From Talaromyces rugulosus (lineage: Eukaryota; Ascomycota; Eurotiomycetes; Eurotiales; Trichocomaceae), in assembly GCF_013368755.1 (NCBI RefSeq), contig NC_049563.1, positions 1,984,001 through 2,048,000 on the forward strand: DNA of 64,000 bases, written 5' to 3'. The position numbers and the translations under genes were made by a program. Under the pieces are notes generated by a model. That model worked only from the letters and a program-made list of their open reading frames with translations, ran no database searches and had not been told where the DNA came from. Positions 2,240 to 40,116 of the stretch are shown piece by piece. The stretch's first letter is position 1. Each line of letters starts with the position of its first letter.

Positions 2240-2552
2240 TCAAGCTACAGTAAGTATATCCTTCTCGTCTACAACATCCGAGTGGCCTCCTTCGTGGGTA
2301 TCTCGAATCTTTTGAGAGTCATCCGTGTTAGTCATCTGTTGTGGTTAATGTAAGAATACATACAAAATATTGCCCAGTGAAGGTACCATCGTTGTCGAAA
2401 ATGACATCTAAAACAAGTCCTCTGTGCTCACTTGTTTGATCTGAAGAATATTAGTACCGCTTGACGTAGTTCATGGAACTGACCCCAGCGACAGACGGTT
2501 GTAACTTACCGTAGTACGGCGTGAATTGAACATATTGTCCTTCTTGATACAT
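2240..2552 (-). CDS. Small paralogous protein A (62 aa), cluster 1
   Basis: Gene model: complement(2510-2552, 2364-2440, 2240-2308), with GTAAGT and GTATGT donors and CAG and AAG acceptors. It encodes 62 residues beginning MYQEGQYVQF. The family pattern is GQ-x-V-x-F, then H-R-G-L-V-x-x-V, then G-x-Y, then a C-terminal E-x-D-I-L. Intron 1 is phase 1 and intron 2 phase 0; exon 2 is exactly 77 bp, as in four other members. There is no signal peptide and no membrane segment, so a soluble intracellular single-domain protein is expected. Its size and its alternating hydrophobic and glycine positions resemble SH3/Tudor-like barrels, but that is inference and the function is unknown. It is the most downstream gene of a same-strand run of four. 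Confidence 0.78.
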
Positions 2553-2820
2553 TTTACTGTGTGGTTTCAGACTTTATTTTTTAATAACCATTCGACCATT
2601 CAGATTTCTCAAAAGTTAAAATCGAGGAGAAGAATCTCAAGGTAAATTTATTTACACACAATAGGAAAATGTTGCCGCTGTGCTGGGTCTTTATAAAATA
2701 ATTTCCTATATGGTGACATCATAACAATTTTGCATATGAAAGGCAAATTGCCACGAAAATAATATGATGACAGGGATTAAGAAACAATTAACCCAAGAAA
2801 AGGCATCTGGACTTTAATTT

Positions 2821-3105
2821 CTAAACACTGTATTCATCACCTGGCAGAAGAGGCCCAACGATATCCTCTTCACGAACAACGTACTCCATGCCGCCTGAGT
2901 TATATGTGTGTCGAACCTAATCCAGGACCCTTAACGTATGGTTCTAAAAGTCTAAAAGAGAAAAGAGACAAACCAGATATGCACCTGTGAAGGTATTCGT
3001 TGTATCGATAATGGGATCTAATATACGACCAGCTTCTTCATCTGGGGTGGCTTCTCCATTATAATTCTTATAGTGGATTAACTGCCCTCTGTTAAACAGG
3101 ACCAT
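2821..3105 (-). CDS. Small paralogous protein B (75 aa), cluster 1, lacks intron 1
   Basis: Gene model: complement(2974-3105, 2821-2916). The single intron (57 nt, GTTTGT...TTAG, phase 0) sits where the other members have intron 2. Intron 1 is absent at exactly the codon where it interrupts the paralogues: the sequence runs straight from the GQLIHYKNY block into the EEAGRILDP block. The last exon gives VRHTYNSGGMEY followed by V-x-E-E-D-I and a longer acidic tail. ATG at 3103-3105 starts MVLFNRGQ, which aligns with the starts of the other members. Function unknown; see the family finding. Confidence 0.72.
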
Positions 3106-3530
3106 GATTAAGGAAATTTTTGAAACTCCGGTAATTAAGGCTTGTTTCTTGTCAGTCAATCTAACATTGAAGGGGTCAAACTTTATTTATAACTCTATTT
3201 ACGTAATTCTTAGATCATACTTCACTTGATCACTACCTACGCTGCCATCATTCGAGGCAATTTAACGAAGTCAAGCTCATAATTTGATCGGAAAAAGGGC
3301 TTACTTTGGAAAAGTAAAACAAATATGAACGGTTCTATTGACCAAAAACATTTGCTTACTTTCAGCCAGCCGAACTGGGCAATACAGTTAGAACTTCGTG
3401 GGATCCGGGTTCTGGTGAATCACGTCACCAAAAAGATGTATCGTGAAATAACTAAGCGGCAATTTGCCGCAGGTCCAGTCTACTGGGCTTTGAAAGGCTG
3501 CTAAATAAGTAGCTGAGACTCTTGTATATT
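3106..3530. other. Spacer between small paralogues B and C
   Basis: AT-rich sequence containing the upstream region of gene B and the 3' flank of gene C. I see no further family member, RNA gene or repeat here. Confidence 0.4.
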
Positions 3531-3870
3531 TTATTTCAAGATAGCCACATCTAGTTCATCTGTGGCATGTCTCTCTTGAGAACCTGAAACGCCCTGGATC
3601 TTTGACCGGAGGAATTGGTTAGCGTTCAACCGGCAAATTTCAAATGCATATTAGGGATTAATTTGCTAGCAAGGATTCAGATATCGTCAGATATACTAAA
3701 TATTTCCCTGTAAAATGTCCCTCATGAACTTCTAGTATCTGTCCTACCCAAATGCTCCCTAGGCTCGTTTCGTAAACTGCTGGTGGTGCTTTTATTAACC
3801 GTGGAATGATCTCACCGTTAGGATCTTTGAAATTGACCAGCTGACCTCTGGGGAACCTGCTAGAGTTCAT
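3531..3870 (-). CDS. Small paralogous protein C (61 aa if spliced), cluster 1
   Basis: Gene model: complement(3816-3870, 3697-3758, 3531-3599). Intron 2 (3600-3696) has a GTATAT donor, a perfect GCTAAC branch site and an AAAG acceptor. Intron 1 (3759-3815, GTGAGA...CCTAG) is 57 nt long and free of stops in frame, so an unspliced 80-residue version is also possible. The spliced form fits the family better: MNSSRFPRGQLVNF, then WVGQILEV, G-H-F-T-G-K-Y, then a C-terminal D-E-L-D-V-A-I block. An ATG further upstream, at the end of a longer open frame reaching 3966, does not align with paralogue starts. Function unknown. Confidence 0.65.
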
Positions 3871-4167
3871 TATTACAGAGTCGGTATTTGCTTCATTATA
3901 AAAATCTGGCGAGTCAACATTTGGGCTCAATGTAAAGGTGACATACACAGGAGCAGGAAAAACCAACTGGAAATTTCATTGGTTTAAAATAATGGCCTCA
4001 TCATATAATCATCACTGCATAAGCACAGCATGCCGCTGGCGGCAAAATTTGAGAGTAGACAAACAAGTCTTCCGAAATCACCTCTTGCATTAGGAGGAAT
4101 GAATTAACAAGATATTGAAAGTGTGGGATTTTATTTGGAATCTTCGATGGGATCTTGAGCAGGTCAT

Positions 4168-4600
4168 TTATCGCTCTCTATCTCTATCTCTATCAATGTA
4201 TGCCTCGTGGATCGTCTCTAGCTTGCCAGATTCATGATTTGCCACCTAATAGTAGAGAAGAAATCGCATTAGCCACTTCGAATAGTATGGCCAAAGTAAT
4301 GCAGAATATTGATGAACGTGCCATGTATTTGTGCAACGCACTACCCTCGTTATCGACGATGACGGCCTCGACGGTACCGGTATTTTGAGATGATCTTTCT
4401 AGTTGATTGGCGGTCAATAACAGGTCCTCAAATTTCACTGTATGTCCTTTTTTGATTATCGGATAGACATGTCTGTCAGACCTACCATCCATCCCGGCAT
4501 AACTGATTGTCTGCCCAATGCTATACTTGGCAGCGGCGGCCGGTGGTCGAGGGAGATTCTCGAGAATCTTATTCATACTTGAAAATGGGCTATCGGACAT
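4168..4600 (-). CDS. Small paralogous protein D (89 aa), cluster 1, GC-AG intron
   Basis: Gene model: complement(4486-4600, 4322-4398, 4168-4245). Exon 2 is 77 bp and both intron phases match the family. Intron 1 (4399-4485, GTAGGT...ACTAG, 87 nt) is open in frame, so its retention would not stop translation. Intron 2 starts with GC instead of GT (complement of 4320-4321) and ends in TTAG; with a GC donor the reading frame passes cleanly into VANHESGKLETIHE. The N terminus has about 25 extra residues, including a proline/alanine-rich stretch, before KYSIGQTISY. The C terminus ends in a D-R repeat encoded by a GAGATA microsatellite. The unusual donor could mean a real GC-AG intron or an early pseudogene. 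Confidence 0.6.
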
Positions 4601-5283
4601 TTTTTAAAAGTAGATTTTCTTGTTTCTTCAAGACCTGGAGTGTATTAGGGAACATATTGATCGAACCGAGTTGGTTGTATTGTATGAGTGGTGCACCGCC
4701 TCTTCACATCTTGGCCTCCCGGAATAAACTTCCAAGACAGCTACGTACAAAAGTAGGGTGGGGAGCCACCAGAACATTTTTATGTAGAAGTACGAATTGT
4801 CCTCAGTAGCATTAGCAATGTAGACCAGTTTATTGTCTTTCGACTCATCAAAGGCTATTGTTGTCAGCTGAAACACGATGAAACGTGGGCTCAAGGCGTT
4901 TTACAAGCTAGGCCCTCAGAGCAAACAAAAGGACTCCATTACTATTATTGTGACATATGTAGTCAAACCACACCATTATGCGCTATTTGGCGTCAAGCTC
5001 CAACATCAATAGTGACAATAAGTGAGGAGGCTGGGAAGAATTAGGGCTTAGGGTTGGTGGGCGGGGATAGGCTGAGTCAGCAGAGGAGGACGTCACCGAC
5101 GACCCCTCGCTTTTGCATCATTAATTCATCGCTGGCTTGGTTTAGAAGAGAGAGTTTAGTCTTGTCATAAGCTACATAGGTAGGAGATCTAACACATTCA
5201 AACTGGCATTCAGCGCTGTAAAAGAGGCTTGTAGTCGCAGGCTACACCAACAGCTTCAGTATCTTTCTGATAGAGGGTTCGGC
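4601..5283. other. Spacer upstream of small-gene cluster 1
   Basis: It contains the probable promoter region of gene D on one side and of the flavoprotein gene on the other. An 88-codon minus-strand frame at 4628-4894 faintly resembles the middle of the small-gene family but lacks the G-Q start block and splice sites; it may be a relic. Confidence 0.4.
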
Positions 5284-6139
5284 ATGGCGAGTAGCAATCC
5301 GACCGCCTCGCCTGCCCCGTGGAAAAGCCTGTTTTTGGAGCATGTCTCTAAACAGGAAGATCCATATATGGCAGTGGCAACTGTGGAGCGAGATCCCAAG
5401 AGCGGCTCGTCGATTCCGCGTGTGCGATATTGTGGTTTTCGGGGCTTCTTCGGCGAGCTCAAGCTTCACCATTCGGCAGAGAAGCAGCTAAAAGAGGAGA
5501 ATGAACTGAACCCATCTTTGTATGAGTCTGATCTTTTGGCATTTACGACGGATGTGCGCATGCAGAAAGTCGAACAGTTTGGTGATTTTGAGGGAGCGAT
5601 CGAGGTGGTCTTCTGGGTAAAGGAAGTCATGGCCCAGTGGAGGCTGAGGGGAAAGGCTTTTGTAATCGGCGACGATGCGAACAAGCCCGCTGAGAGAGAA
5701 TCGAGGTCAGAGATTTCTAAAAGCCTCAGGAGAAAACCAAATCCCTCAGACGACTCAGAGGCATCTGCTGAAAACTGGACTTGGGAAAATGAAGTTACCG
5801 CATATTTTGCCAACCACAGCCCTATCATGAGAGGTATGTATACAATGCCTGCATCTGCGCCATTGTTGGGCGACGACTAACGATTATTCCCCAGGTTCTT
5901 TCAAAAACCCAGCACCTGGACAGCCCTTGAGCGAAGAGCCAACCGACCCCAACCTCAAGCTGGGCCAGAAAGTCACAGGGCTTCACGATGCCATTGCACG
6001 GGCTAACTTTCGAGTCGTAGTGATCCGGGTTGAAGAGGTAGACAGGCTGGACCTGACCCGCACAGAGAGGGCTGTTCGGTGGAGGATCTCTGATAGTAAT
6101 AAAACTGGGCAATGGGAAGAAGTGGAGTTGTGGCCGTGA
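5284..6139 (+). CDS. Alr4036-type FMN-binding (pyridoxamine 5'-phosphate oxidase-like) protein
   Basis: Exons 5284-5833 and 5895-6139 are joined across a 61-nt intron with a GTATGT donor, a GACTAAC branch site and a CCCCAG acceptor, giving 264 residues. The N terminus reads PWKSLFLEHVSKQEDPYMAVATV, then P-R-V-R-Y-C-G-F-R-G-F. Later come a SDLLAFTTDVRMQKV stretch and a EVVFWVKEVMAQWRLRG stretch. This is the split-barrel flavin-binding fold of the Alr4036 family. The C terminus ends WEEVELWP, the usual end of these proteins. The biochemical substrate is not established for the family; binding of FMN is inferred from the fold. It is a soluble protein with no signal peptide and is divergently placed relative to small-gene cluster 1. 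Confidence 0.85.
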
Positions 6140-6810
6140 TTCCAGCCTCCGGGGCGTTTGTGCTTCTCGTCTGAACAAGTTGACTGTATCCCCGATCCGG
6201 CAACGTGTGAGATGTGCCCAACCCCCCCGGCTGCCTAGAACCAATAATTCCTTTCTTTGACCCATCTGGAGACCTTTACCTGTATCTTCTCTCCATTTAA
6301 TTTGTCTGAATAGCCGCGCCCAGTCCATTCCTTTGACCTATTGTGCCGGCCGTCAAGCTTGGTTTCAGAAAAGGCTCTGTTTGAACGGCTTTTTCCGGCT
6401 GAAACGAAACAATTCAATTAATGTCGTTTGTTTTGTTCCCTGCCGGTTTTATAACTTGGGCCATTGAGACGCTCTTTGATGCAAGCCACAGGATTTCTTG
6501 ACAACCTGGTGGGCCCCATTGTTTACCTTCTCTCTGCCACAAAACACAAAAGACTCCACCGCAGAAAGGCGCGTTTGTCGTCTTTTGCTATTGTTTCACC
6601 TTGCTCTGTCTCTTCTTCAATCGTGACTTCCATAAAGTCATCTCCCTTCCCCTCCCATCTTGCTCTTCTTCTTCCTCTCCATCTTCATCATCATCATCAC
6701 CACCAACAACAGTCAACCGACCATCTTCCAATTTTTACATCAAAACCGTCCTCTTAACTTTCCTCTCACACGTTTACAAAACACGCCAATATTTCTTTCC
6801 AAAATCCATC
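6140..6810. promoter_or_regulatory. Pyrimidine-rich upstream region of the half-zinc-cluster gene
   Basis: The stretch from about 6540 to 6780 is rich in CT tracts and TC/ATC microsatellites (CTTCTTCTTCCTC, CATCATCATCATCATC), typical of fungal promoters and 5' leaders. Short open frames here are low-complexity artefacts. No TATA box was assigned. Confidence 0.4.
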
Positions 6811-7616
6811 ATGCCTTCCGACGAAGTTCCTCGTGCCCCTAGACCGCAGCCAGAATCATCTGCAGAGCCTTCAGCCTTTTTGGACAATAGCAACAATGTA
6901 CAACCCCCCGCCGCTTCAGCTCCAGCCAAGAAAGTAAGCAGCAAGAGCCACCGCCATCACAAACAGATGAATGCCAGTATGCTAACAACCGTGTTTAGAC
7001 ACGCACTCGCAAAGAAATCAAGCCCAAGTTCACCCCGGCCTGTGAAAACTGCAGGGTGAAGAAACTGCGATGCACCCATCGTCGTCCCATCGGTCAGGAA
7101 ATCGACACCACCAGTGTCCATGCAAAGCCCGCACAATCCGAGAAACCAGAAGGGCCTCGAACAAAGCGACTCCGTAGCACGCTGCGCAACCCAGGCCACG
7201 ATGACTTGATCGGATACGATACCGTGCCTGTGGCAGAGCCTGCTGAACCGGCTGCCCAACCGGGACGACAGGCCTTAGGTTTGCGAAAGCGCAAGCGCAG
7301 TCGTGATGAGGCGGAGGAGTCTGCAATTGGCATTTCGGCGAATCCCTTGATTTCTGGCCCAAGTCAGCCTGCGAAGCAGAGGCATGCGCCCCCGGCGGCG
7401 AATCGGAGATGGACTTTGCAAGAGATTAGTACAATTACATGGTGTGACACCATGGAGGAGAGATTCCGGCGACGATTGAAGACGGCCAAAGAACAGTGGC
7501 GCAGGCTAGGCGAGACAATCGAGATCGCACACGCACAGTTTGACGAACTTGTTGAGGATATGGACGCTATGGGGCATATACTAAAAGAGTGGGATGGAAA
7601 ATTCCCAGGCGCTTAA
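6811..7616 (+). CDS. Protein with half of a Zn2Cys6 cluster (246 aa)
   Basis: Exons 6811-6933 and 6999-7616 are joined across a 65-nt intron (GTAAGC...GTTTAG, branch ATGCTAAC). Residues 55-66 read ACENCRVKKLRC, the first half (C-x2-C-x6-C at 56, 59 and 66) of a fungal Zn2Cys6 DNA-binding cluster with its basic VKK. The second C-x2-C-x6-C half is missing: no cysteine follows until a lone one near residue 190. The middle is rich in R/K and P/A. The C-terminal 60 residues (from RRWTLQEI) are predicted helical and end in an acidic-hydrophobic segment. It may be a degenerate regulator that no longer binds zinc in the usual way. Partner and target are unknown. Confidence 0.72.
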
Positions 7617-8198
7617 CGGTGGTTTTTCATGTGTGGGTCTGATTATCATGAAAAGACATACAGGAGTCTAGGGTTGGAAGTTGCATATTGACGCTGGCGC
7701 TAGAGATTTTTTTGATTTACTGGGATTTGATACCATGTTTAGCGATTTTTTTATCTGGACGGTCTTTGTACCATCAGGATTGGTTGTTCAGTACTTGATT
7801 GAGGATTCATTTTGAGCGAGTTGGGTTTGTTTGTAACATGATTTTCTGGAAGAGAAAGCTCGGAAAAGAGAGAGAACTGTTTTGACATGAATATCGATGC
7901 TTTTGTGTGTTACCACTTCATACTGTGTGCTATTGAGAGTTTCAGATGCATAAATATTAAATCATTAATAGTATTGCGAATCCATACTAGAAAATACAAG
8001 TCCACTCACCGCCTAGCATTGGACGGGCAGAGCCGGGCGGTGAGCTCCCCGCAAAATAATCCGTCAGAAAAGAAAATAATTTCTCACCGCCCGAGCCTGC
8101 TGCTTCTTCGACCATCTCAACAACTTTTTCCCTCCCTTTTTTCTCTAGCACCAAGCCTGTATAGCCTGCATTCTTCGGACGTGCCATTTTTATCCACA
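7617..8198. promoter_or_regulatory. DBP7 upstream region with repeated CTCACCGCC motifs
   Basis: The motif CTCACCGCC occurs at 8005-8013, inverted at 8034-8044 (CGGGCGGTGAG), and again at 8083-8093 (CTCACCGCCCG). The last two form perfect 11-bp inverted arms 38 bp apart, 105-165 bp before the DBP7 ATG. A CT-rich tract follows from about 8100 to 8190. The reading frame is open upstream to 7887, but the ATG at 8199 matches family starts. Confidence 0.45.
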
Positions 8199-10598
8199 AT
8201 GGCCGATGATGGCATGCTTCTGAATTTTTCCATTGGTGATTCCGTGCTGAAACCGGAGCAAAAATTCAAAGGTGGAACATGGAGGGACCGGCTTTCGGCG
8301 AGGAAATTTGCGCAGGGAAAACGAGCCCCTCGCCAGAGAGCCCAAAGGGTAAACGGTCAGCCAGGAGGAGACGATAATAATAATCCGAACCGTGTGAACC
8401 TCGGTCCACGAGCAGAATCCGGCCCCCGTCCAAACAAGAGACAAAGGACCGACGACGATGGAAGTTTTCGACCGTCGACATCTTCGACCGGCGAGCCTCG
8501 TGTGGGAGGGGGAGGAGGAGGAGGATCACGAGGACCGAAGCCCAAGAATATTATATCGTCGCTTTTCTCGTACAACCCAGCCCCCAAAGACGTTGAGGAA
8601 CTGGAAAAAAAGCAAACCGAAACAGACGAAGCAGAGATCCAGCCTTCAAATGCACCTTTGATTCATGGCTTGGAGGATTTCACGGCCCTCGGCTTGGGCT
8701 CGACACTTGCCGCGCATCTTTTGACCAAGATGGAACTCAAGGCGCCGACAGCGATCCAAAAAGCATCTATAGCACAGCTTGTGAAGGAAGATAGTGATGC
8801 CTTCATACAGGCCCAGACTGGTTCAGGAAAGACGCTAGCATATCTCTTACCGCTCGTTCAGAGGATTATGGCTCTCAAATACACTAGCAGTTCAAATCTT
8901 GACGATAAAAACTCGGATGCAGTCCATCGTGACTCGGGATTGTTTGCCATTATCCTGGCGCCGACTAGAGAACTTTGCAAGCAGATCTCCGTTGTTCTAG
9001 AGAACCTTTTACGGTGTGCTCATTGGATTGTCGCAGGCACAGTTATCGGTGGTGAAAAGAAGAAGTCGGAAAAGGCTCGGCTGAGAAAGGGTCTGAACAT
9101 CCTTGTAGCCACGCCAGGTCGACTTGCCGATCACTTGGACAACACTCAGGTGCTGGATGTAAGCAATGTTCGATGGCTGGTTATGGACGAAGGTGATCGT
9201 TTGATGGATCTTGGATTCGAGGATGAGATACAAGGGATTGTGAAAATACTCGATGCGCGCCAACGACCTAGCTCTGTGGTCGGCTTACCTACCACGAGGA
9301 CTACAGTGCTATGTTCTGCCACATTGAAGATGAACGTCCAACGGCTCGGAGAAATCAGTTTGAAAGATGCCGTTCATATCAAAGCGGATCCTGCTGATGA
9401 GGATGGAAATCAGGGCTCTGATGATGAAGAGGCTGCCTTCACGGTTCCTGCCCAGCTCAAGCAGTCATATGTTGTGGCAGCAGCAAAGCTTCGATTAGTC
9501 ACTCTTACGGCTCTGATGAAACGTACATTTGCGCGCAAAGGCTCTGTGATGAAGGCCATAGTATTTGTGTCATGTGCCGATTCTGTGGAATTCCATTTTG
9601 AATTGTTCACTCGGAAAAACGAAGCAGATACGAAAGCAGATCCTACGGATCCTACAGATTCATCTGATGAAAGTGACGCAGAGACCGAAGACAAGAAAGA
9701 AAACAAGGAAAAAGAGAAAGCAGCCCAGCATGGCACCATTCGCTTAGCGACAGCATTCTCTAGCCCTTCCAACCCCGTCACAATCCACAAACTGCATGGT
9801 TCGCTACCTCAACATGTCCGGACATCGACTCTTTCTGCGTTTTCGAAAAGCAAAGAAGCATCTGTCCTTTTCTGCACCGATGTCGCTTCTAGAGGTCTCG
9901 ATTTGCCCAACGTCGATCTTGTTGTGGAATACGACCCTGCATTTAGCTCTGACGAGCATCTGCACCGAATTGGTCGTACAGCTCGTCTTGGCCGTGACGG
10001 TCGAGCTATGGTCTTTCTTCTACCGGGTAGCGAAGAAGGCTACGTTGAAACCCTCAAGAGGGGTTATCGAGACGGTGGGAAATCCCTCACGCGCACCGAT
10101 GCCAATGAAATTTTGAAACGTGGATTCGGCGGGAATACGGACGCTAAAAGTCGGAATTGGGAAGAAAAGGCCACGGATTGGCAGCTTGATGTCGAACGCT
10201 GGTCGTTGGAAGACCAACAGGCGTTGGAACTTGCTCGACGGGCCTTCCAGTCCCATATTCGTGCATATGCAACTCACATTGCTGCCGAAAGAAGCTTTTT
10301 CAACATCAAAGAACTTCACCTGGGCCATTTGGCGAAGGCATTTGCTCTCCGAGACAGACCGTCCAAGGTCAATGTTCCGGGTCTAAGACAAACCAAGGAC
10401 GACACCAAGAAGGATTTCAAAGCAGGCAGGCGAGTCTCGACAGGTAATGGAACGGATAAGAAGAGGTCTGCTGGTAGGAATAATGACAATGACGATGCTC
10501 CGCAGCGTACAACAAATAACGATGAAGCTGCTCGTGCGATGCGTGCCAAGATACGCCAGATGACTGGAGGTGGTGCCGGCGAATTCAATTTGGCTTAA
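8199..10598 (+). CDS. DBP7: ATP-dependent RNA helicase DBP7 (DEAD-box family)
   Basis: Intronless, 799 residues. Motifs: Q motif KAPTAIQKASI (181-191), Walker A AQTGSGKT (205-212), APTREL (254-259), TPGR (305-308), motif II DEGD (330-333), SAT (373-375), RGLDLPNVD (565-573) and HRIGRTARLGR (589-599). DEGD in place of DEAD, the two acidic insertions (about 400-412 and 475-505) and the long basic N terminus are characteristic of Dbp7, a nucleolar helicase needed for early large-subunit (60S) pre-rRNA maturation. The C-terminal DUF4217-like region lies around 680-730 and the tail is basic. The ATG at 8199 was chosen because MADDGMLLNFSI begins like other fungal Dbp7 proteins; longer in-frame starts lie in the leader. 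It converges with ASA1, with only 118 bp between the stops. Confidence 0.95.
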   Translation: MADDGMLLNFSIGDSVLKPEQKFKGGTWRDRLSARKFAQGKRAPRQRAQRVNGQPGGDDNNNPNRVNLGPRAESGPRPNKRQRTDDDGSFRPSTSSTGEPRVGGGGGGGSRGPKPKNIISSLFSYNPAPKDVEELEKKQTETDEAEIQPSNAPLIHGLEDFTALGLGSTLAAHLLTKMELKAPTAIQKASIAQLVKEDSDAFIQAQTGSGKTLAYLLPLVQRIMALKYTSSSNLDDKNSDAVHRDSGLFAIILAPTRELCKQISVVLENLLRCAHWIVAGTVIGGEKKKSEKARLRKGLNILVATPGRLADHLDNTQVLDVSNVRWLVMDEGDRLMDLGFEDEIQGIVKILDARQRPSSVVGLPTTRTTVLCSATLKMNVQRLGEISLKDAVHIKADPADEDGNQGSDDEEAAFTVPAQLKQSYVVAAAKLRLVTLTALMKRTFARKGSVMKAIVFVSCADSVEFHFELFTRKNEADTKADPTDPTDSSDESDAETEDKKENKEKEKAAQHGTIRLATAFSSPSNPVTIHKLHGSLPQHVRTSTLSAFSKSKEASVLFCTDVASRGLDLPNVDLVVEYDPAFSSDEHLHRIGRTARLGRDGRAMVFLLPGSEEGYVETLKRGYRDGGKSLTRTDANEILKRGFGGNTDAKSRNWEEKATDWQLDVERWSLEDQQALELARRAFQSHIRAYATHIAAERSFFNIKELHLGHLAKAFALRDRPSKVNVPGLRQTKDDTKKDFKAGRRVSTGNGTDKKRSAGRNNDNDDAPQRTTNNDEAARAMRAKIRQMTGGGAGEFNLA

Positions 10599-10716
10599 GA
10601 TGATGCATATGTGGTGTTGCATGAAAAGCGTGTCTTTCTTTTTCTTTCTTGTCATCTTTAAATTTTTTTCTTTCTTTATTTACTCATTGTAAATAAGCAT
10701 CGTGCATTTGTCTAAT

Positions 10717-12115: not shown

Positions 12116-12532
12116 TGATGCTTTTACCAATGGTCGACAGCTTTTAATGGATTAAAATCGTAACTTGGGTCGTTGCTGCTGGTTGTTGATTGGGCGGATG
12201 AGTCAGTTGGGTGCCTTGGTGCCTGGCGGCTGGCCTGTTGGTGCCTGAGGCTTTACGAACGACGCATACTACAATGTTCTAATTGTTCTTGTACTGATTT
12301 CATTAAACCTCGTGTATATGGCATTATATTCAGACAGAAATCCAGAAACAGTAACCAAATAAAATATACATACATAAATCTTAAACTTTCCCAATAAGAA
12401 TGCAATTTCGTAATCGTTCCGAGTGCATTGTAAATAGCACGTAACATCGTCATAAAAATTTTCAGTGGCACAGGGTATCGTAGAAAACACACGTCTAGAA
12501 TACAGATCTGAAAGGCCAACCGAGTTCGTCAA
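12116..12532. other. Intergenic: ASA1 promoter and 3' flank of the Zn2Cys6 gene
   Basis: Both neighbouring genes are on the minus strand. The region is AT-rich at 12290-12420 and holds no supported feature; overlapping small frames on the minus strand are spurious. Confidence 0.4.
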
Positions 12533-14725
12533 CTAGTATGGAGGAGGGTAATTGTAGCCGTCCAGGTGGTTTTGCGGGGCAACATAATGATCCTGATATG
12601 GATGGTTTGGCATGGAAAAGTCAGCGCTAACCATTAAGGGATTCACAATCCCTGATTGTACCCTCGTGCGCGAAGGTGTCGTCATCGAGTTGGAATTCAA
12701 CAGCGAGTGGCCATTTAAGGTTGTCGTAGAGCTTGCAGATTCCGACTGGGGACGATTGTTGGGAGTTTCCCAGCCCCATTTTTCTTGTAGCTCGTTCTTG
12801 AGAAAGCCAATACGCCAGCCAGCCTCCTTCATGATTTTATCCATGATGTCCAGGATTTCTTCCTGTGCATCACGAGAGACCAAACATTCAGCTGCGATTG
12901 CAAGACAGCGGATTGACATGGTAGCAACTCCACTATGGCCTGTCAGTCGCCGGAATTAAGGAGAGAGGGAAATTTTAAAATCGACATACCGGTCCTTAAC
13001 GTGAGCAACGATGCCGCACAGGTCATGGGCATGTCTTTGTTGCATGTCCCGCATTTCTGTACTAAACTCGGATTCGACAGGATGGCATTTGGCCAAAAGA
13101 ATGCAAGTGGTGTGGTAGAACAGACGGGCAGCAATCGCAGGTCGTCTGATTAGCCTGTGAAGAGCAAATGGAAACATTCATAAGCAGGAGAAAATCGGTG
13201 AGAACGCGGTAGGACTTACCAAACTTCAGGAAAGGCCGACTTTGAGGTTGTTTGCCATGGATGAAGATAGCTCATGGGAATCATCGAACGTGGAATGCAT
13301 TTTGCCCACTCGTCACACCACCTCTTATATGTAGTCCATTCATGGCACCGCTGTTGCAGTCGCATGGTTTGAGTATGCCGATCTGACCCCTGGAGTTGAG
13401 GAGCACTCGTGCGAAAGTTAGCAACTTTCGCACAGATGAATACCATCCGATGCGTCCATGACTCTTCGTCACCGAATAGACTTTGCGAAGGCACAAGCTC
13501 CGATTCCATGTCCATTCCCCACGTGTCAGGGTCCCAGGCCATCTGCCAATCGAAATGCAGACAGCTTAACAGCTCCATTCCAACATTGAGCCAAAAACAC
13601 GCACCGCCTACTCCAGGTGTTTTTCCGTTCCACTGGCACTCTTTGATGAGGGCTCTGGCACCCGCGATATGGTTCATCCGTTGCACTGCACTCTCGCACA
13701 TTACTTCATAACAATTCAAAATGACAGCAGTCGTAGCACAAAGAACAGAATCCCGACTGGGGTCTTGCAAATGGGATAGCAAGGCTCGGGAGGCAGCATT
13801 GTAGTAATGCAATGCGCGGTCTTCACTGAATGACGGATTCACAAGATGGAGATGTCGGGCTCCACACGCCAGAATGGAGTTGAGTAGCATAGGTTCTCCA
13901 AGTGCATGGAAAGGCAGCTTCTCTGTAAACTGGGCTGAGTCAGATCGAGGGCAATATTAAGTGATGATCAAGCTAACTTACATGTTTTTGGGCATCCATA
14001 GAATCCATCCAAAGCCCAACTTCTTCTACAAAAACTTGCATGAGAAGGGCTTCCTCGGGAGTGTTGATATATGGGCGGATGTTTGAAGCAGATACAGGCG
14101 ATGATTTCGGTAGAAAAGTGGACTGTTCAGCAAATGATGGTGTTATGTACGAAGGCTCGCTGAATATGGAATCTTGCATATCTGTATGCTGCGCCTCGGG
14201 ATATGATGGAAGCATGGAAGGAGATACGGGCAAAGACTGCCTCGGCATCACAGATGCGTTCAGAACATCAGGAAAGTCGAATTGCGAAGTTGCTTCTTGA
14301 GACGCCTGGTTATACTGTTTCAATGAAGGATATCTCTCGAAACCTCCCTCATATTCGGATGCGATCTCTCTCGACTCATCCTGAAAGGCGAAAAAGGACC
14401 GGTGCGGAGGGGTTATATAATGAGGCGGAGATACTGTTTGAGTATCGATGAAATTGAGGCGAACGCCTCGCTTGCATATCCTCCCAGACTTGGAGCAATT
14501 CTGACACCTTGGCAACGCCTCATCGCATTTCAGATGGCGTTCGCGACAGGTTAGACAGCCCGTCCGCACTCTTTTTGGTTTTGAATTGTCGGAGCCATGG
14601 CGGATCCTGGGCGGCTGTTCGTCTGCATTGTCTGGACGACTTTCAATAATTGTTGGTTGCGTGTTGTGCGAATGACTGTGTGGTTCAGACGCCGGTCGTC
14701 CAGATGAGACGGATGGATTCCGCAT
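12533..14725 (-). CDS. Zn2Cys6 transcription factor with Fungal_trans_2-like domain
   Basis: Four exons: complement(13982-14725, 13220-13929, 12990-13154, 12533-12932), all GT-AG, 672 residues. The binuclear cluster is near residues 53-85 (GCLTCRERHLKCDE then CQNCSKSGRICKRG; C-x2-C-x6-C-x6-C-x2-C-x6-C), preceded by a basic KPKRVRT. A serine/proline-rich linker follows, then the regulatory region starting FTEKLPFHALGEPMLLNSIL and the ACGARHLHLVNP helix typical of the ARCA/Fungal_trans_2 class. The third exon continues the helical repeat (LIRRPAIAARLFYHTTCILL). The tail has FLKNELQEKWGWE, a common end in this class, and an asparagine/proline-rich terminus. It is expected to be a nuclear, sequence-specific regulator; targets cannot be deduced. 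Confidence 0.9.
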
Positions 14726-15849
14726 TGCTTGTCTGTTGTTGCTGGAGTCTAAGCTCTAAGCTTCAAACCCGGAGAACGATACCGCCTGGGTGTGGCAGGT
14801 CAATTATAGGCGACAGAGGATATTCTCTGCGCGGTACATGACGCTTGTCACTCCATGTATGATGTCGAAGTGATGGCCGGGGTTATTGGCTATTCGCTCG
14901 CGGAGAAGGGAGGACGAAGGGCTTTTGTTACGACACGGCGCAAGGACGAGGGGGATCAATTGGGATATGTCGGTCGGTTCAAGTGAAAGTCTCGAGCAGG
15001 AAAATATCGCTACTGAGAGAGATCTAGACTTCTTGTTGGTTAGTGATAGCCACCGATGACAACCAGGACGAGCTCCACACGAAATAATCGGATCGCACGC
15101 GGAGAAGTTCGGACAAACCAACGTCAAGAAAAGCTGCGCCGGTGAGTTGATGAGCGCGACTAGGCAGGAAAAAATGCTAGAGGGGAGAAGCAATGCGATG
15201 CGCAGGCGACAAAAGATGGGTTGCTGCAAGGTTCAACCGGAGACATCGCGAACCCGCGTCATGGCAATGCCGGGAGGGGAAGGAACTGCCGCCCACGCTA
15301 AACATTGTTCTCACATCATCTCTTCTATCTCTTAAGAATACTACCACTCCCTCATTTATTTTTATTCTTGTTCTAAGGAAAATAAGCGAGGATTATTTGT
15401 TATTCAACTGGCTACAAAGTACTGACATTTTCACCAACAACATGAAGCACCCTCTTTAGAATGTCTTTTGTCTTTGGGCAGGTATCTCTTAAGAATACTA
15501 TCACGCCCTCATTTAAACAGCCTGCATTTTCAGTCTCTTATCCTCTCAATTTCTACCTCAATTTTGCAGGTTCATTCATTCCCGAAATTCTAGGACACCA
15601 TATTGTGACTATCCATTTCTCTGCACACGATCCACACACAATCAACACACTATCAACAGAGTCTCCCCATCTCTCATTTCTGTTTCCTCCACACTCGGGA
15701 ACTGGCAACAGCAGCAGTGAGCAGAGCTGCGCACTGCGACCGATTCAATGAAGCATATCTCTGATGAAAAGTGCGGAGGAAGTTATGTCTTCGCGACGAC
15801 CAAGATATACTTGGCATCGTTTACAGCTTCTTACTCTCTCTACGTAGAG
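14726..15849. promoter_or_regulatory. Upstream region of the Zn2Cys6 gene, with a 32-bp direct repeat
   Basis: The long non-coding upstream region includes a near-identical 32-bp direct repeat (15327-15358 and 15484-15515, containing CTTAAGAATACTA) 157 bp apart. Open frames on both strands here are short and start without homology. Probably promoter sequence of the factor at 14725 and 3' flank of the unresolved locus to the right. Confidence 0.4.
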
Positions 15850-17929
15850 TCAGGACCCGATCGTCCAGCAGGGATTCGTGTCGATGAATGTATGTTCCCG
15901 GCACCTAATACGCCAGCACTCAACAGAGGGCGCACAATCCCTATCCTCGATCCCCTTTTCTCGTAAATATCTTTCGTATCTGAGATAGAACGGCTTTCGC
16001 ACTTGTTGAGGTTGGAATAGGTTTGTGATAGATGTCGATGTCGAAGGAATGCTCTGGTCCACTGGTAAAGGCTTGACTGTTTTACCTTTGCAGCTACTCG
16101 AATTGCACCACCGAATAGCTATAATGTAAGTGCCGGGTCGGTGGACCGCTCATCGGCCGTGCTGTCGTTTGAGAGGCGCTGTTGGCAACGCCGACAGGCC
16201 AATTCAACGACTCTTCCGTCAAAATGGCTATGCCAGTAATTTTTATGTGGCCGGGTATCCTTCTCGATGCTCTGTTCTTGATGGCTGAGAATTTGCTTAA
16301 ATAAACACACAAGTTGCGGGATATCGCACTGGGAACCTCCTGCAGCCTAAGCACCCGCATAAAAATGGTACTCACGTCCTGGAAGTTGGAGATGGGCTCA
16401 TTCGCAAATAGGATATGCTTTTGTCCTTGAAACCACTCCAGGACCGCAGCTGGTAAATCAGTAGGTACTACCCAGTCGTCGGAGGATGTCCAATTAGACA
16501 GGGCTTCTTTGGCGAGTGGGGTGTATTCACTCAAAGCCTTATTGCTATGAGATTTGTGTTGTAAATAAAATCCCCCCGATCCTACTCTAAGCTGATCAGA
16601 AGCACTGCCACATTGAATGACTTCGGTGCTTTCATCCACCTGTGTTTTCTGTGCTTCGTGCAATCTATTGTTCACTTAGTAAAATTTCTCTTGCCCTGCT
16701 TTATGCTTTATAAAGAAATTTGAAGACCTACTTTTCCACTGAAATTGGACTTCCTTGTAGATCTTTCACGCGGATACAATCCAAAAGAATGTTCATGACC
16801 TCTGTGGTGCCTCCAGCGCCTTCAATCACTTCATTGTACGGAATACGTCTCAATTCAACACATCATTCCGGAGAACGCTGTAGAGGAGATTTTGCAGCAC
16901 TTTTTGCATGATCGGGAAGGTTATTTGCGGCGGCGAAATTTGAGACTACATCTGTCATCTCTCCATTAGTAAAATGGTCAGTACAAGAAAGTGAGAAATA
17001 GTACCAGTCCAGACACCGTAAGCTGGATTTGTAGCAAGCTGCTTGGAACATATTTTCCGGCTCTAGCCTCGTTTTCGTCGACGTAATCTTTGTTTCATTT
17101 CTTTGCAGCTGAATAGCACCAAAATTAGAACTTCGGCTTTCACCCGTGACTCCCTGAGATAGAAACAGTTCATCGCGAAATGGTTCCTTTGTCTTACTGG
17201 GCGATAGCCGCATCTGTTGTCCTGCGTATGGGCCAATCACGAAGTTTTTCGACGTGAGTTTCAATGCAAACTCCTCGTTCTGGAGCATACCTATACCCAT
17301 TTTGTTGATTGTACTCGTATTCACGACATAGCTGTAATGCTTCAAAGTAGTAGTCCAGGGAGTCGGTCAGTGATATCCATGAGATTTCCCATGTTATCTC
17401 TCTTCTTGGCGACCCAGGCCTTCAGTCGAGATGTTCGGTTGCTGATGCTGGACTTGACTCGCTTGTTGTGTACTCTCTTCGGATTCCGAGGAGACACGAA
17501 TCAGGAGACAAGTAAATTGATCGCGTGTTTTGCGTAAATGTCGTCCTGGCCATCTATTCCTGCTCCATTGCCGTTTCTGCTTCCCTATTGGGAGCTTCAC
17601 GCCCAAATTATGGGGTTGATTCCATACTTGAAGCGGTTGGCGGTCGGGAAAGGCACTGTCAGCATAGAAGTAACTTCCAATGGCTTCGAGTTATCCGGTC
17701 GCATGAGAATTAAAACCGCCAGTAAATGGATGATGAAATGATCCAGACAGGAGGATAACTTCCACCCTTGCCGATAGAGACTGTTGGGAGCAACTTGTTT
17801 ATCCGCAAAACCTGTCATTGACAAAGCCCATAGAAGCAAAATATGAGTCTGATCGGTGAACAAAAAGGCTAACTGCCCAGGGTTGTGGAGCATTCTTGGA
17901 CGGTTGGTTGTATTGTGAGGTGCAGACAT
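15850..17929 (-). other. Unresolved probable multi-exon minus-strand locus
   Basis: Several long minus-strand open stretches lie in different frames: 17597-17929 (starting MSAPHNTTNRPRM and containing QLAFLFTDQTHILLLWALSM), 16863-17345, 16094-16675 (containing AVLEWFQGQKHILFANEP), and about 15850-16075 (GKTVKPLPVDQSIPSTSTS). Their size and composition suggest coding sequence, but I could not find a consistent set of splice sites linking them, and some frames lack ATG starts. It could be one gene with several introns or a decayed gene. I recognise no domain. Confidence 0.3.
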
Positions 17930-18019
17930 GAGCTTTGCGAAGTTGTAATATCCCACTAGGAATGATAAGTAAATCTCATGATAATGTAGTTGTTGATCGA
18001 GACGTATATAGACCCGCAC

Positions 18020-18129
18020 ATGCCCAAGCCTAGCCGGAGATATCCAGAAATGTCAACGTTTTGATCCCCATGGCGGAAGTTTTTCACTCACCTTTTTATT
18101 TGCAGCTACCATTTGCTGGCATTTAAGAC

Positions 18130-18162
<33 letters not shown>

Positions 18163-19346
18163 AAATTCATTGTGTGTGGCTTCCCCTGTCTTTATCATCG
18201 ATATTATTGTCGTTGTGTTTTTTTCTCGCAGCGCCGTGAAGCACCCTGTTGATCTTTCCCTGGTGCTAGATAATTCAAAGCTCATGGGGGAAAATCTTCT
18301 TTGATTCTTGTCAGGAATGTCCCGAGACCGCACAAACGGCCTGATGAAGAAGAGACCGCCAGGTCAGGTGTGTGACAGGTCTGCCTGATGGCTCAGGGAT
18401 GGCTCCGCCAACAATAATCATCATCATATCGCTATTTGCGATGGATGCGTGATGGACTTGTGAATTGTTGATGGATGATTGATGGATGTGAGAAGTTGAA
18501 GAACTTCCACTGAAGCGAATTTAAATGTGCGGTCGCTCGGGCGGTGTAAGAATCCAAGGGCGGTGCTCTATTAGGAAATTGCCCAGTCCCGGTCGGTGAG
18601 GAAAATAGAATCTTTCTTACAAGAAATAATAACTATGAAATATATTTGTGCTTTTAGAGTTGCATTAGATACATGCTCACAAATCTATATTCTTGATACG
18701 TCAACACTGATTTTCCACCAGTTGGCGACTTTTCCCCCCGGCAGTGATGGATCTAATAGGCTATAGCACTCCTCAATCAGCATCGTAATAATCTCAACTG
18801 TTTATTATAAAGATATGGGTTAAACTATTAAAGTCTCTAGATTCTGGCAAATGAGTATCGAGGTCTTATCTTGAGTTCTATAGTCAACATACGGGCTATT
18901 ATCTGGTTCGCGCTATGATTTCCACGTCTCTCGTCACTTTATCAACAGAGGTAAATAGCATAAATTAACATCTCAGGTACATAGACGATACAGACTAGAC
19001 CGGCATTAGGTCTATTCACGAAGACCGCATTATCCGCGTGGTATGAGCGAGATCCTCGTATCTAATAATTCAAATAAGACGTGAAAATCTACAATCATGA
19101 CTGTGGCAACTCATTTTTATATCGGAACTGCGTTCCGTCGACTGGGTATTGAGTGATATAGTCATTTCATCACAAAACGGGACCATTGGCGAGATGGATA
19201 CGTGAAACAACTTTAAATGCAACAGTTCTGATTTCCAAAATCTCGACTGCTTCAGAATTATTCAAAAACAACGATTTTTCAACGGGTTAGCACTTTGACC
19301 GATGGTGGTTGATCTCCAAGACGATTCAATAAATAATCCCAGTACA
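18020..19346. other. AT-rich spacer with an (AC)n microsatellite, upstream of cluster 2
   Basis: The spacer contains the (AC)n tract at 18132-18160, ATGG-rich short repeats at about 18430-18490, and two GGGCGGTG motifs (18539-18546 and 18558-18565) similar to those upstream of DBP7. No gene was found. Confidence 0.4.
18132..18160. repeat. (AC)n microsatellite
   Basis: About 14 uninterrupted dinucleotide units. Confidence 0.95.
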
Positions 19347-19680
19347 ATGGCCAAATACAAGGAGGGGCAGTTTATCCAGTTTAATCCCAGCCACGGTTAG
19401 TAATTCATGCAAAAATATAATATTATATGAGAAACACAAGCTTTGACCACCTACTGGATTCTATAGATCCCAGCGTTGATCATAGAGGTTACATCTCAGA
19501 AGTCTTGACTAATGAGAAGGGCATTCCCACTGGGGATTACATGGTAATCATTTCTATCTCAGAGGAGAAAAAAGCCGTTATCATTTTACTTACCGTTACT
19601 ATATGATCATATAGGTTGAGGATCGTGATTGGGGTCTGATCAAAATCCAGGAGCGAGATATACTCTCGGCTTATACGTAA
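19347..19680 (+). CDS. Small paralogous protein E (63 aa), cluster 2
   Basis: Exons 19347-19395, 19467-19543 and 19615-19680. Introns are 71 nt each (GTTAGT...TATAG and GTAATC...TATAG). Exon 2 is 77 bp, intron 1 phase 1, intron 2 phase 0. The protein begins MAKYKEGQFIQFN, passes H-R-G-Y-I-S-E-V and GIPTGDYM, and ends VEDRDWGLIKIQERDIL plus four residues. This is the clearest family member and defines the consensus: G-Q near residue 8, a H-x-G turn, G-x-Y before intron 2, and an E-x-D-I end. Soluble, function unknown. Confidence 0.82.
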
Positions 19681-19938
19681 AGAGCTTTCTACATGTCATC
19701 ATTGGAGACCAGCGTTAATAGAATAACCATCCGGCATTCAAATCCGCAGTAGGCACAGGCAATTTACATAATTATTTTTTTTTATTCCTGGAAATCAGAG
19801 TTAAGTGGCTTCGCGGCACTGGTGATAATTATTTCTGCTTCGAAGCCTTCTACCCCTTCATATCGAACCACCGATCTACGTACATCATAATCACTCAAAC
19901 ACCTAATTATCCACTTACTTTGCCTTATCAAAGGAATC

Positions 19939-20259
19939 ATGTATGAGCTAGGAGATGTGGTAGAATTCAGCTACAACCATGGTAAGTAGCGACGACAAAC
20001 TCCATCAACAGCGCAACTTAAAAAGTAATCTCCATGTTTCAGAACTAGCAAACAGCCACCACGGACTCATTATAGGCATCGTGACGGGCGAAAATGGTAA
20101 AAGCCTCGGGTCTTATCTTGTAAGTGACTTTATTTGAGGCGTCTAATATAAATTAGTATTACTGACACGATTGATGTTCAGGTTGAGGAACGCGATGGTA
20201 GCCGTGTCAAAGTAGAAGAGAAAGATATATTTAAAGGTTTAAGGGAGCTTAGAGAGTGA
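19939..20259 (+). CDS. Small paralogous protein F (65 aa), cluster 2
   Basis: Exons 19939-19981, 20043-20119 and 20182-20259, with GTAAGT and GTAAGTG donors and CAG acceptors. Exon 2 is again 77 bp. The protein begins MYELGDVVEFSYNH (G-D in place of G-Q), passes S-H-H-G-L-I-I-G-I-V and S-L-G-S-Y-L, and ends VEERDGSRVKVEEKDIF followed by a short charged tail. It lies 259 bp after gene E on the same strand. Confidence 0.82.
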
Positions 20260-20886
20260 TTATTCCCGTTATGGGTAACTGAATATTCGGTTTTGTTTAG
20301 CTTGTATTTGGTGATGAGAAAATAAGTAGCTAGTAGTCTAACTATATAGTAATTTCAACTTATTTGTGGTTAGGGGTAGATTAGAAGGTACGACATCGGG
20401 GACTCCCAGCTCCAGCGACGCTATGTGTACTAAGTATCATTAATATGTATAGAAGATCCGATCTATTGAGTGTTAGATTTATCTACTGTTTTAAAATTAC
20501 AGCACAAACATCCTATTGTTTTCGTAACACAACCTGGTTTTGACCTTGAAGTTATTAGTGCCATTAGGGCTAAGATCGTCTTGGAAAACGGCCGGCCTGT
20601 GTCTATTCCGAGAGCTTTGTGGATATTCAATTATTGGAATTTAGATCATATGATCATTTATAGCTATTTTTAGATAGAAAGGTACACAAAACACCGTAAC
20701 AGGAAATGATTTGTGTAAACCTTCACGTTTCACGAAGTCACCACGAAATCTCCGACCTTTTTGTCGGCGTCTGCTCAGGTCAACTTTTCCTTAAATTTTC
20801 AAAACAAGTGACCCAAGCCAAAGGACAGAAAGAGAGAACAGATAACTCAAAAACTGAGGTGAAAATATCATGACGCAAAGGTCACA
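20260..20886. other. Spacer between small paralogue F and the membrane protein gene
   Basis: AT-rich, no supported feature. An open frame at 20470-20673 begins with GTG and shows no family resemblance. Confidence 0.4.
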
Positions 20887-21950
20887 ATGGCGGCATCAAC
20901 TAGGGACCTATTAATAAAACTGCCGACAAGCACAATACTTGAAACAAGACTATCCACAACGACTTCAGGGGTTCCCGCACTGACGACCGTTCTCAATCTG
21001 CCATCCTCGTGTCTAGCTGATATATGGCTTGATTTTTGTTACGTACCCTCAACCTCTGACAGCGACGTAATCTCTGACATATATGACTATGTACGCCTCG
21101 GCCCACGACTGTGGGATTCTAACTGTTTCCCATTGGGCTATTCCCCAGAAACAACGGATTCCGTGTTTTATTCTCCAGGGGTATGCCCACAGAGCTATAT
21201 ACAAGCATGTTCGAGTAAATTTACCGCTGGCACTGTTACAGAAACCCAGGCAATATGCTGTCCGACGTAAGTCTCCTACAAAAATTCAACTGGTTTCAAG
21301 TGTTCACTAACTTTCATAACAGCGATTACTCCTGTCAAAAAAATACCGATTGGCCGTGGCGACTCACGAATCAATGTGTATTTCGACTTTCGTCTACGTC
21401 AATCTTCCTAATAACGAACTCGTTGGCTGGGCCAATTAGCTCTGTCACAGAGACAGCAACGAGTGGTTACGAGATCAATGCTTACGGTATCAGTATCAGA
21501 TACCAGTCCAGTGATTTTGTATCAGCGCCAACAAAAATCTCTTCTTCCTCTACTTCTCCATCAACCGCGGCAACCACAGGCACTTCCCCACCCACGTTGA
21601 TCGCAACATCAGCACCAGAAACAAACCACCCTTCAGGCCTATCCAGTGGTGCAGGAGCAGGCATCGGTGTTGGCGTAACTATTGCAGTGTTTGCTCTAGT
21701 TGGTTCTGGTCTTTTCTATTTCTTCCGTCGTCGACGATCAACTTCAACCACGTATGAAGCGACATCAGTGACACCAATGACGCCAACGCCACCAACACCG
21801 CCGTCGGAGTCACACGATAGATCAGAACTGGTCGGTAGCCAGGTATACACAGAACATGAATTTGAACACATTCCACGACAGGACGTTGTTACCCTAGCGC
21901 AGCCTCCGAGTCATTCGGACCTAGTCCGGCCGGGATCAGGTAAAGAGTGA
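20887..21950 (+). CDS. Single-pass membrane protein with Ser/Thr-rich stalk (335 aa)
   Basis: Exons 20887-21266 and 21323-21950, with a 56-nt intron (GTAAGT...AACAG). The N-terminal half is cysteine-containing (SCLADIW, NCFPLGY, CPQSYIQAC, ICCPTDYSCQ), a pattern common in fungal surface proteins of unknown role. Then come a Ser/Thr/Pro-rich stalk (SSSSTSPSTAATTGTS), a glycine-rich membrane span (IGVGVTIAVFALVGSGLFYF), an RRRR stop-transfer and a T/P-rich cytoplasmic tail. No N-terminal signal peptide is visible from this start, which is odd for a type I topology; an upstream exon or a later start is possible. It sits between paralogues F and G. Confidence 0.78.
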
Positions 21951-22254
21951 GACAAAATACACTCTTTATGGCACTTTCCAGAAAGGCCAACTGTATGTCC
22001 AGACATATTCAATATTTCGAACTTTTTTTTTTTTTTTTTTTGGTTTCTCTTTTGTTTTATTTCTTTATTTCTTTTTATGGTTGAAACTGGTTTCATGATT
22101 AGTGGCAAGCATCGTTCGCCTTTGGTTGCCGGATTTCGAATCCGAAAACATCGACGCCGATTGCTGTCATATATAGTTTTCCCTTAAGTCGATCAATATA
22201 TTCAAAACCAATACATTTATCCCCTTGCCTGAAGTCTTTGTTTTAGTTTTAACT

Positions 22255-22586
22255 ATGCATATCGGACCCAACAAAGGACAATTGGTCCAATTCGCAGCAA
22301 ATTGGGGTACAACAACTCAGTCGCTCAAGACACTTCTCTAGAATTCCGTACTAACCATTGAAATAACTTCCCATAGATAATGGCAACGAGCACGCGGGCT
22401 ACATAAGAGAGGTCATGGTTGATAGAAACGGTGCTTTTTCAGGGCATTACATGGTATGATCAGCTACCTTTTCTTTCTTGCCCTTCTACATTTTAACCCG
22501 TACATTTGGGGTGCAAGATTGAAGATAAAAACGAAGGCGGCAAATTACATTCCTTAAATGCAGCAGGGATTCGTCGGGTGATGTGA
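22255..22586 (+). CDS. Small paralogous protein G (65 aa), cluster 2
   Basis: Exons 22255-22306, 22377-22453 and 22518-22586. Introns GTACAA...CATAG (70 nt) and GTATGA...GCAAG (64 nt). Exon 2 is 77 bp. The protein begins MHIGPNKGQLVQFAANW, passes E-H-A-G-Y-I-R-E-V and F-S-G-H-Y-M, and ends IEDKNEGGKLHSLNAAGI plus four residues. Its last exon has lost the E-x-D-I ending, so it is the most divergent C terminus of cluster 2. Confidence 0.75.
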
Positions 22587-22789
22587 AGGGGGCTGGTGTC
22601 TTTGGTTATTGATCATGGTTGAATCACTGGCCACTGTGACTCGGAAGAAAGGTCCGGCAACGAAAAGGTAGCTGATAGCATTTGCCTACGTCTATAAAAA
22701 AAATTGTTGAATACATCTGTTGTTCATCTCCTAACTGCTTAAATAAATTTATGTTTTTATAACTCGCATTCAACAGCAAAACAAAAGCA

Positions 22790-23066
22790 ATGGCTCAGTT
22801 CGACAAGGGGCAAAGAGTCCTCTTCAAACCACAGGATGGTACGTAAAACTCCAGTCTCCTTTATACGATGTGTCTAAGCCATGGTCTAGAACCTGCAGCG
22901 GAACACAAGGGCCTCGTTCGACGAGTCATGCCCGATGGTCGATATCTGGTTTGTGTTCCTTTCTTCTTTGCTTCAACTATCATTGCTAACTCTTCAGATT
23001 CACGATTTCGATGCCCCGCGTGACAGCATGATAGAGGAAGGACTAATCCTCCGAGCTCTTGATTGA
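22790..23066 (+). CDS. Small paralogous protein H (58 aa), cluster 2
   Basis: Exons 22790-22838, 22890-22948 and 22998-23066, with introns of only 51 and 49 nt (GTACGT...TCTAG, GTTTGT...TTCAG). Exon 2 is 59 bp, that is six codons shorter than the 77-bp form, the loss falling in the loop between the H-K-G-L-V-R-R-V strand and the G-R-Y-L strand. The protein begins MAQFDKGQRVLF and ends IEEGLILRALD. Its base composition is less AT-rich than its neighbours. It may be the least derived copy, but that is a guess. Confidence 0.78.
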
Positions 23067-33693: not shown

Positions 33694-33806
33694 ATCCCCT
33701 CCTTCGAAGGCTGGCGTCCCGACAGTCACATAAATAGTCGCAGGTCCCCGTCGCACAGGTAGGCTGATTCCTTTTCGTTAACATTCTTGGTGGTGATGTT
33801 CTAACC

Positions 33807-40047: not shown

Positions 40048-40116
40048 GATTAGCTCGTTAGTAAGGTTCGATTGCTTACCTAGTTCTCAAAACTTCGTGT
40101 TATGAGGGTGTTTTAT

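What the first reader, a model, noticed from the sequence alone, without database searches (positions are those of the whole stretch)
2240..23066. Undescribed family of eight tiny three-exon genes in two clusters of four
Genes A-D (minus, 2240-4600) and E-H (plus, 19347-23066) encode 58-89 residue single-domain proteins with one shared pattern: a G-Q/G-D block near residue 5-10, x-[VI]-x-[FY], H-x-G-[LYV]-[VI], a variable loop, G-x-Y, intron, then [VI]-x-[DE] and often E-x-D-I. Sequences between members are very divergent but exon structure is kept. Such rapid divergence of a tandem family of minimal domains is unusual. The barrel-like pattern could fit nucleic-acid or chromatin reader modules, or a self/non-self or element-defence role; none of this is shown.
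Basis: partly seen in the sequence, partly recalled or inferred. Interest (0 to 1): 0.88.

Follow-up and report, generated by a model that had tools for sequence, protein, structure and literature searches.

The report
Tiny Tudor-like genes in fungal tandem
A mould carries a cluster of eight very small, very divergent genes for one barrel-shaped protein domain, which look like shortened descendants of a known fungal and bacterial domain (Hva1_TUDOR); a modest but real family finding whose function is unknown.

Summary
Eight small genes (minus 2240-4600, plus 19347-23066) share one domain: each is found by a profile built from the other seven, and in the seven members aligned the introns share column and phase. 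A ninth, decayed first exon lies at about 2014-2071. In this genome I found the family at this locus only; Talaromyces marneffei has a copy of B. It has known kin: the genome holds two Pfam Hva1_TUDOR genes (PF11160) with introns at the same columns and phases. Profile comparison joins the two families end to end (94%, P 1.4e-7), with one ten-residue gap where the window genes lack Hva1_TUDOR's AS-x-x-D-x-x-Y hairpin; Pfam misses them. The reverse search is weak. A model of the T. marneffei copy is a five-stranded Tudor/SH3-like barrel (pLDDT 78). 'Rapid divergence' is not supported: copies of A, B, E and F in relatives are closer than the paralogues. Best reading: old, hairpin-less derivatives of Hva1_TUDOR, probably soluble binding modules; ligand unknown. 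New variant of a known kind.

The parts
2240..2552 (-). Gene A, exons 2552-2510, 2440-2364, 2308-2240; 62 aa
   Evidence: splice model; leave-one-out E 2.4e-21; exon 3 copy P0012
2821..3105 (-). Gene B, exons 3105-2974, 2916-2821; 75 aa; no first intron
   Evidence: E 1.9e-8; annotated T. marneffei copy P0009 (EYB26_001800, 74 aa, 53% identical) continues across the exon joint as modelled
3531..3870 (-). Gene C, exons 3870-3697, 3599-3531, 80 aa; alternative with 39-nt intron 3815-3777, 67 aa
   Evidence: weakest member, leave-one-out E 1.5e-4
4168..4600 (-). Gene D, exons 4600-4486, 4398-4322, 4245-4168; 89 aa; second intron would be GC-AG
   Evidence: E 9.1e-10
19347..19680 (+). Gene E, exons 19347-19395, 19467-19543, 19615-19680; 63 aa
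   Evidence: E 1.6e-16; copy P0008 identical over 25 of 25 exon-2 residues
19939..20259 (+). Gene F, exons 19939-19981, 20043-20119, 20182-20259; 65 aa
   Evidence: E 1.1e-10; copy P0007
22255..22586 (+). Gene G, exons 22255-22306, 22377-22453, 22518-22586; 65 aa
   Evidence: E 7.7e-16
22790..23066 (+). Gene H, exons 22790-22838, 22890-22948, 22998-23066; 58 aa
   Evidence: E 5.7e-9
2014..2071 (-). Decayed ninth copy: first exon only, start codon reads ATA, no second exon found
   Evidence: (E 2.2e-4), (inverted repeat I1, 74% to exon 1 of E)

Best explanation
The eight genes are an old tandem expansion, in a Talaromyces-like fungus, of a shortened derivative of the Hva1_TUDOR domain (PF11160, Tudor clan). 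Each codes for a single soluble-looking five-stranded Tudor/SH3-like barrel of about 60 residues with little or nothing else. Relative to Hva1_TUDOR they lack about ten residues of the strand 2-3 hairpin, the stretch with Hva1_TUDOR's AS-x-x-D-x-x-Y motif, while keeping the same two intron sites. Shown by comparison: shared homology, intron sites (given the splice models), absence of the hairpin, copies of several members in relatives. Predicted: the barrel fold. Inferred: they work as small non-enzymatic binding modules, more likely for a peptide or protein partner than for nucleic acid, with the variable strand 1-2 loop giving each paralogue its own partner. The chance that the ancestry statement is right I put at 0.85; that the binding-module statement is right at about 0.5.
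For: Ancestry: two PF11160 genes elsewhere in the same genome (spliced; Pfam 63.4 bits and 46.5, cut-off 24.1). hhalign of family A3 against Hva1_TUDOR A10: probability 94, P 1.4e-7, 61 columns, a 10-residue gap at the hairpin; with A1, which has no D row, 93.3 and 2.6e-7. Controls by the same tool: PHF1 Tudor P 0.089, the integrase tail of the window's own retroelement P 0.39. A family HMM (8 members and T. marneffei B) finds the two genes at 20.1 and 16.7 bits against a best of 3.3 among 1102 decoy fragments and 0 of 2000 shuffles of each. Introns: intron 1 splits column 18 in 8 of 8 rows that have it (6 members, 2 Hva1 genes) and intron 2 follows column 57 in 8 of 8 rows that have it (7 members, 1 Hva1 gene), in a MAFFT alignment of the proteins; C was not in that alignment. 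Fold: pLDDT 77.8, pTM 0.66, five strands with a short helix turn before the last; neighbours include PHF1/PHF19 Tudor, TDRD3 Tudor and R67-type dihydrofolate reductase, groups that the Hva1 crystal paper also names (PMC5008624, passages). Binding module: no further Pfam domain, no cysteine in any of the 8, 7 of 8 with negative net charge and 6 of 8 with pI below 5.6.
Against: The reverse search is weak: a profile of only the two fungal Hva1 genes beats all 2000 shuffles for D and H only; for A, B, E, F, G and T. marneffei B 10 to 123 shuffles score as well or better, and C is not found. No member reaches PF11160 in Pfam. Two bacterial Hva1_TUDOR sequences score near noise with the family HMM (4.5 and 3.5 bits). 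Splice sites of the window genes and of the two Hva1 genes were chosen by hand. The first fold attempt with six sequences failed (pLDDT 46.7), and the good model is of the T. marneffei copy of B, not of a window protein. That copy is slightly basic (pI 8.2), against a simple acidic rule. No expression or binding data exist here.
Confidence: 0.7

Rival explanations
1. The proteins bind nucleic acid, like KOW or PWWP barrels.
Against: 7 of 8 members have negative net charge; no KOW or PWWP match in Pfam. Charge is only a hint.
Confidence: 0.15
2. They are methyl-lysine readers of chromatin like PHF1 or SGF29 Tudor domains.
For: SGF29 Tudor is the first row in Foldseek (E 0.11) and PHF1/PHF19 Tudor the first rows in VIA-align; acidic character suits basic histone tails.
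Against: The PHF1 cage positions (recalled: W41, Y47, F65, F71) do not hold F, W or Y: W41 equivalent 1 of 8, Y47 equivalent 0 of 8 (His in 5), F65 equivalent 0 of 8, by anchored counting on sequence. The fourth position could not be placed.
Confidence: 0.12
3. They bind a nicotinamide cofactor or tune redox metabolism, as proposed for Hva1.
For: Hva1 is the relative with a studied function; its structure resembles type II dihydrofolate reductase, and NADPH was proposed as ligand (PMC5008624, passages). R67-type reductase is also a neighbour of the model here.
Against: For Hva1 itself the paper calls the interaction potential. The window genes lack the Hva1_TUDOR hairpin motif.
Confidence: 0.15
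4. A fast-evolving self/non-self or element-defence family.
For: Tandem, divergent paralogues; ORFs that look like transposable elements fill much of the window from 33 to 62 kb.
Against: Copies of single members stay alike between relatives: exon differences 1/22 (A), 3/44 (B, P0004), 0/25 (E), 7/40 (F, split codon assumed equal), and B is 53% identical to T. marneffei B. No match to the integrase tail of one element.
Confidence: 0.06
5. A decaying, non-functional cluster.
For: A ninth copy has decayed; D needs a GC donor and C has an odd loop.
Against: Fewer changes in exons than in intron frames between relatives, 4/91 against 9/52, Fisher P 0.015, one copy per gene for A, B and E; B is kept in T. 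marneffei.
Confidence: 0.12

Closest known systems
Hva1_TUDOR (PF11160, formerly DUF2945), with two genes in the same genome (G000:C2 about 5293077 and G000:C3 about 5629813)
   Same: End-to-end profile match, small proteins, introns at the same columns and phases; Tudor clan (PMC6324024, passage), the fold type predicted here
   Different: Window genes lack the ten-residue hairpin with the AS-x-x-D-x-x-Y motif and do not reach Pfam's model; they form a tandem array
Hva1 of Cryptococcus neoformans (CNAG_02591, PDB 4P5N; PMC5008624, listing and passages seen)
   Same: Small fungal protein whose crystal structure resembles Tudor domains and type II dihydrofolate reductase, as does the model here
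   Different: No direct sequence or structure comparison with 4P5N was made here; its proposed NADPH link is not shown for the window genes
PHF1/PHF19 Tudor domain
   Different: No profile match for PHF1 (P 0.089); cage residues not kept at three placeable positions
Talaromyces marneffei hypothetical protein EYB26_001800 (P0009)
   Same: Copy of gene B, 53% identical, continues across the modelled exon joint
   Different: No other member was returned from that species in 3 word-based searches, which have limited reach

Membership tests
Hva1_TUDOR (PF11160) | Pfam profile score above the curated cut-off | tested here: not met
   0 hits to PF11160 for A, B, E, F, G, H and for the final C and D models
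Hva1_TUDOR (PF11160) | Hairpin motif AS-x-x-D-x-x-Y-x-V-E | tested here: not met
   10-residue gap at that place in the family rows; motif as I read it from the 4 sequences of alignment A10, fully kept there in part only
Hva1_TUDOR (PF11160) | Homology over the whole domain | tested here: met
   hhalign 94%, P 1.4e-7 over 61 columns; family HMM to the two Hva1 genes 20.1 and 16.7 bits; reverse direction weak, D and H only
Hva1_TUDOR (PF11160) | Gene structure of the PF11160 genes in this genome (not defining for Pfam) | tested here: met
   Same intron columns and phases, with hand-made splice models
Tudor methyl-lysine reader | Aromatic cage | tested here: not met
   F, W or Y at 1/8, 0/8, 0/8 of three placeable positions; fourth position not placeable; cage residues recalled
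Tudor/SH3-like barrel fold | Five-stranded small barrel with a short helix turn before the last strand | tested here: met
KOW / PWWP | Pfam KOW or PWWP match | tested here: not met
   no such match
Ty3 retroelement integrase tail (domestication) | Sequence match to the SH3-like tail of one of the window's elements | tested here: not met
   hhalign P 0.39; one element only

The most novel reading that the evidence does not exclude
A lineage-restricted set of minimal, hairpin-less Tudor-like barrels works as a combinatorial set of binding modules (perhaps mixed oligomers), at least some of whose parts were fixed before the Talaromyces species split: a eukaryotic multigene use of the Hva1_TUDOR scaffold that current family models do not see.
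Probability: 0.15. Interest if true: 0.55.

Novelty: new variant of a known kind. Interest (0 to 1): 0.32.

Why it matters
It shows a known but functionally open domain, Hva1_TUDOR, giving rise to a tandem family that Pfam does not detect because one hairpin is gone. It suggests that more short, multi-exon barrel genes are missed in fungal annotation, and it gives a set of natural variants for asking what the hairpin does.

Tried and rejected

Literature: 8 searches, seen as listings. None of the titles or abstract starts listed describes this family; the lists were cut at 5 to 15 rows. The one hit for 'EYB26' is a maize paper. led to PMC5008624 (passages read); one search listed three papers, of which passages of PMC6324024 and PMC11580470 were read and PMC12502724 was not opened.

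The tree groups F with its copy (97/99) and B with its copies (96/90, flagged open) but does not resolve the paralogues; long branches were flagged. The exon/intron test used one copy per gene (E, A, B), for B only the first 9 intron residues; dropped B copies gave exon against intron differences of 5/44 and 3/9 (P0001), 2/44 and 0/9 (P0002, against the trend), 6/44 and 5/9 (P0005); the intron of F could not be aligned. The organism is inferred as Talaromyces-like from P0009; it was not identified (one search did not help).
Full report
The window lies at G000:C3:1984001-2048000 of a 35.76 Mb genome in six contigs.

Observation. I rebuilt the eight genes. Against profiles built from the other seven, each held-out member scores E 2.4e-21 to 1.5e-4, and 0 of 1000 shuffles of each reaches it. 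Five of eight have a second exon of exactly 77 nt. B lacks intron 1 and C probably does, so 'three-exon' holds for six of eight, or seven with the short-intron reading of C. A scan of the window found no further convincing member except a decayed first exon at about 2014-2071. A codon-level pattern for the first strand hit 15 places in the genome, of which only three, all in this locus (E, G and the remnant), belong. That pattern does not cover every member, and its control (the pattern read backwards) gave 9 hits. Protein searches of the genome with members and copies gave only this locus, within the reach of that tool. Forty kb to the left and 10 kb to the right gave no hit better than E 8.

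Relatives. Three searches of 5.8 billion proteins returned 12 distinct proteins. Nine resemble B; one each is a copy of E, of F and of the third exon of A (the last a weak hit, E 0.44, but 21 of 22 exon residues agree). Eleven of 12 carry the sources jgi or lgn, which I take for metagenome assemblies, and several read on into the introns, as a gene caller for prokaryotes would. P0009 is an annotated T. marneffei protein that runs across B's exon joint as modelled. Between window and relative, exons change less than the adjoining intron frames: 4 of 91 against 9 of 52, P 0.015, one copy per gene for A, B and E; one of the three dropped B copies goes the other way. Copies of B and of F group with their own member, so at least these are older than the species compared. 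The divergence is then age, not demonstrated speed.

Ancestry. The paper on Hva1 of Cryptococcus neoformans (PMC5008624; passages) describes a small fungal protein with structural neighbours of the same groups. Its domain is PF11160, renamed from DUF2945 and placed in the Tudor clan (PMC6324024, passage). PF11160 occurs at two other places in this genome (no third by protein search). Spliced, they code for 75 and 97 residues and score 63.4 and 46.5 bits. The first has one intron and the second two. In a MAFFT alignment of seven members, P0009 and these two, intron 1 splits column 18 in all 8 rows that have it, and intron 2 follows column 57 in all 8 rows that have it; C was left out. Profile comparison gives 94% and P 1.4e-7 over 61 columns, with a ten-residue gap at the AS-x-x-D-x-x-Y hairpin, and much the same without the doubtful D row. 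Comparisons with PHF1 and the retroelement tail give P 0.089 and 0.39. The family HMM ranks the two Hva1 genes above all 1102 decoys. Against this, a profile of the two Hva1 genes alone finds only D and H beyond all 2000 shuffles and misses C, and two bacterial Hva1_TUDOR sequences score near noise. The splice sites of the Hva1 genes were also my choice, although Pfam's model runs across the joins.

Mechanism. The members are mostly acidic single barrels without cysteine and without a further Pfam domain; no signal peptide was apparent by eye. The methyl-lysine cage of PHF1 is not kept at three placeable positions. I therefore think of small non-enzymatic binding modules for a peptide or protein partner, each with its own strand 1-2 loop; this step is inference, at about even odds.

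Verdict. A new variant of a known kind.

Noticed in passing
window 33425-40556: A Ty3-type retroelement by look of its ORF (34258-40047, minus) between two copies of a 97-base repeat array (33425-33521, 40460-40556), probably in its long terminal repeats.
   Followed up: no
window 43360-48557 and 57127-62398: Two further Ty3-type elements by look of their ORFs, the second with its polymerase frame split.
   Followed up: no
window 50491-56451 (-): A 1986-aa ORF that looks like a non-LTR element with reverse transcriptase and RNase H (read by eye).
   Followed up: no
window about 1423-1630 (+): By eye, two tRNA-like halves separated by more than 100 bases; neither ARAGORN nor Rfam (gathering cut-off) calls a tRNA here.
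   Followed up: partly
window 28999-29094 (+): tRNA-Tyr called with anticodon ATA by ARAGORN, which may come from a misplaced intron.
   Followed up: no
window 20888-21950 (+): Between F and G lies what looks by eye like a gene for a Ser/Thr-rich protein with one membrane span; its second part gave one sub-threshold Pfam hit only.
   Followed up: partly
P0012 against window about 2240-2242: In the relative, the stop codon of gene A reads as Trp and the frame runs on for four more residues.
   Followed up: no
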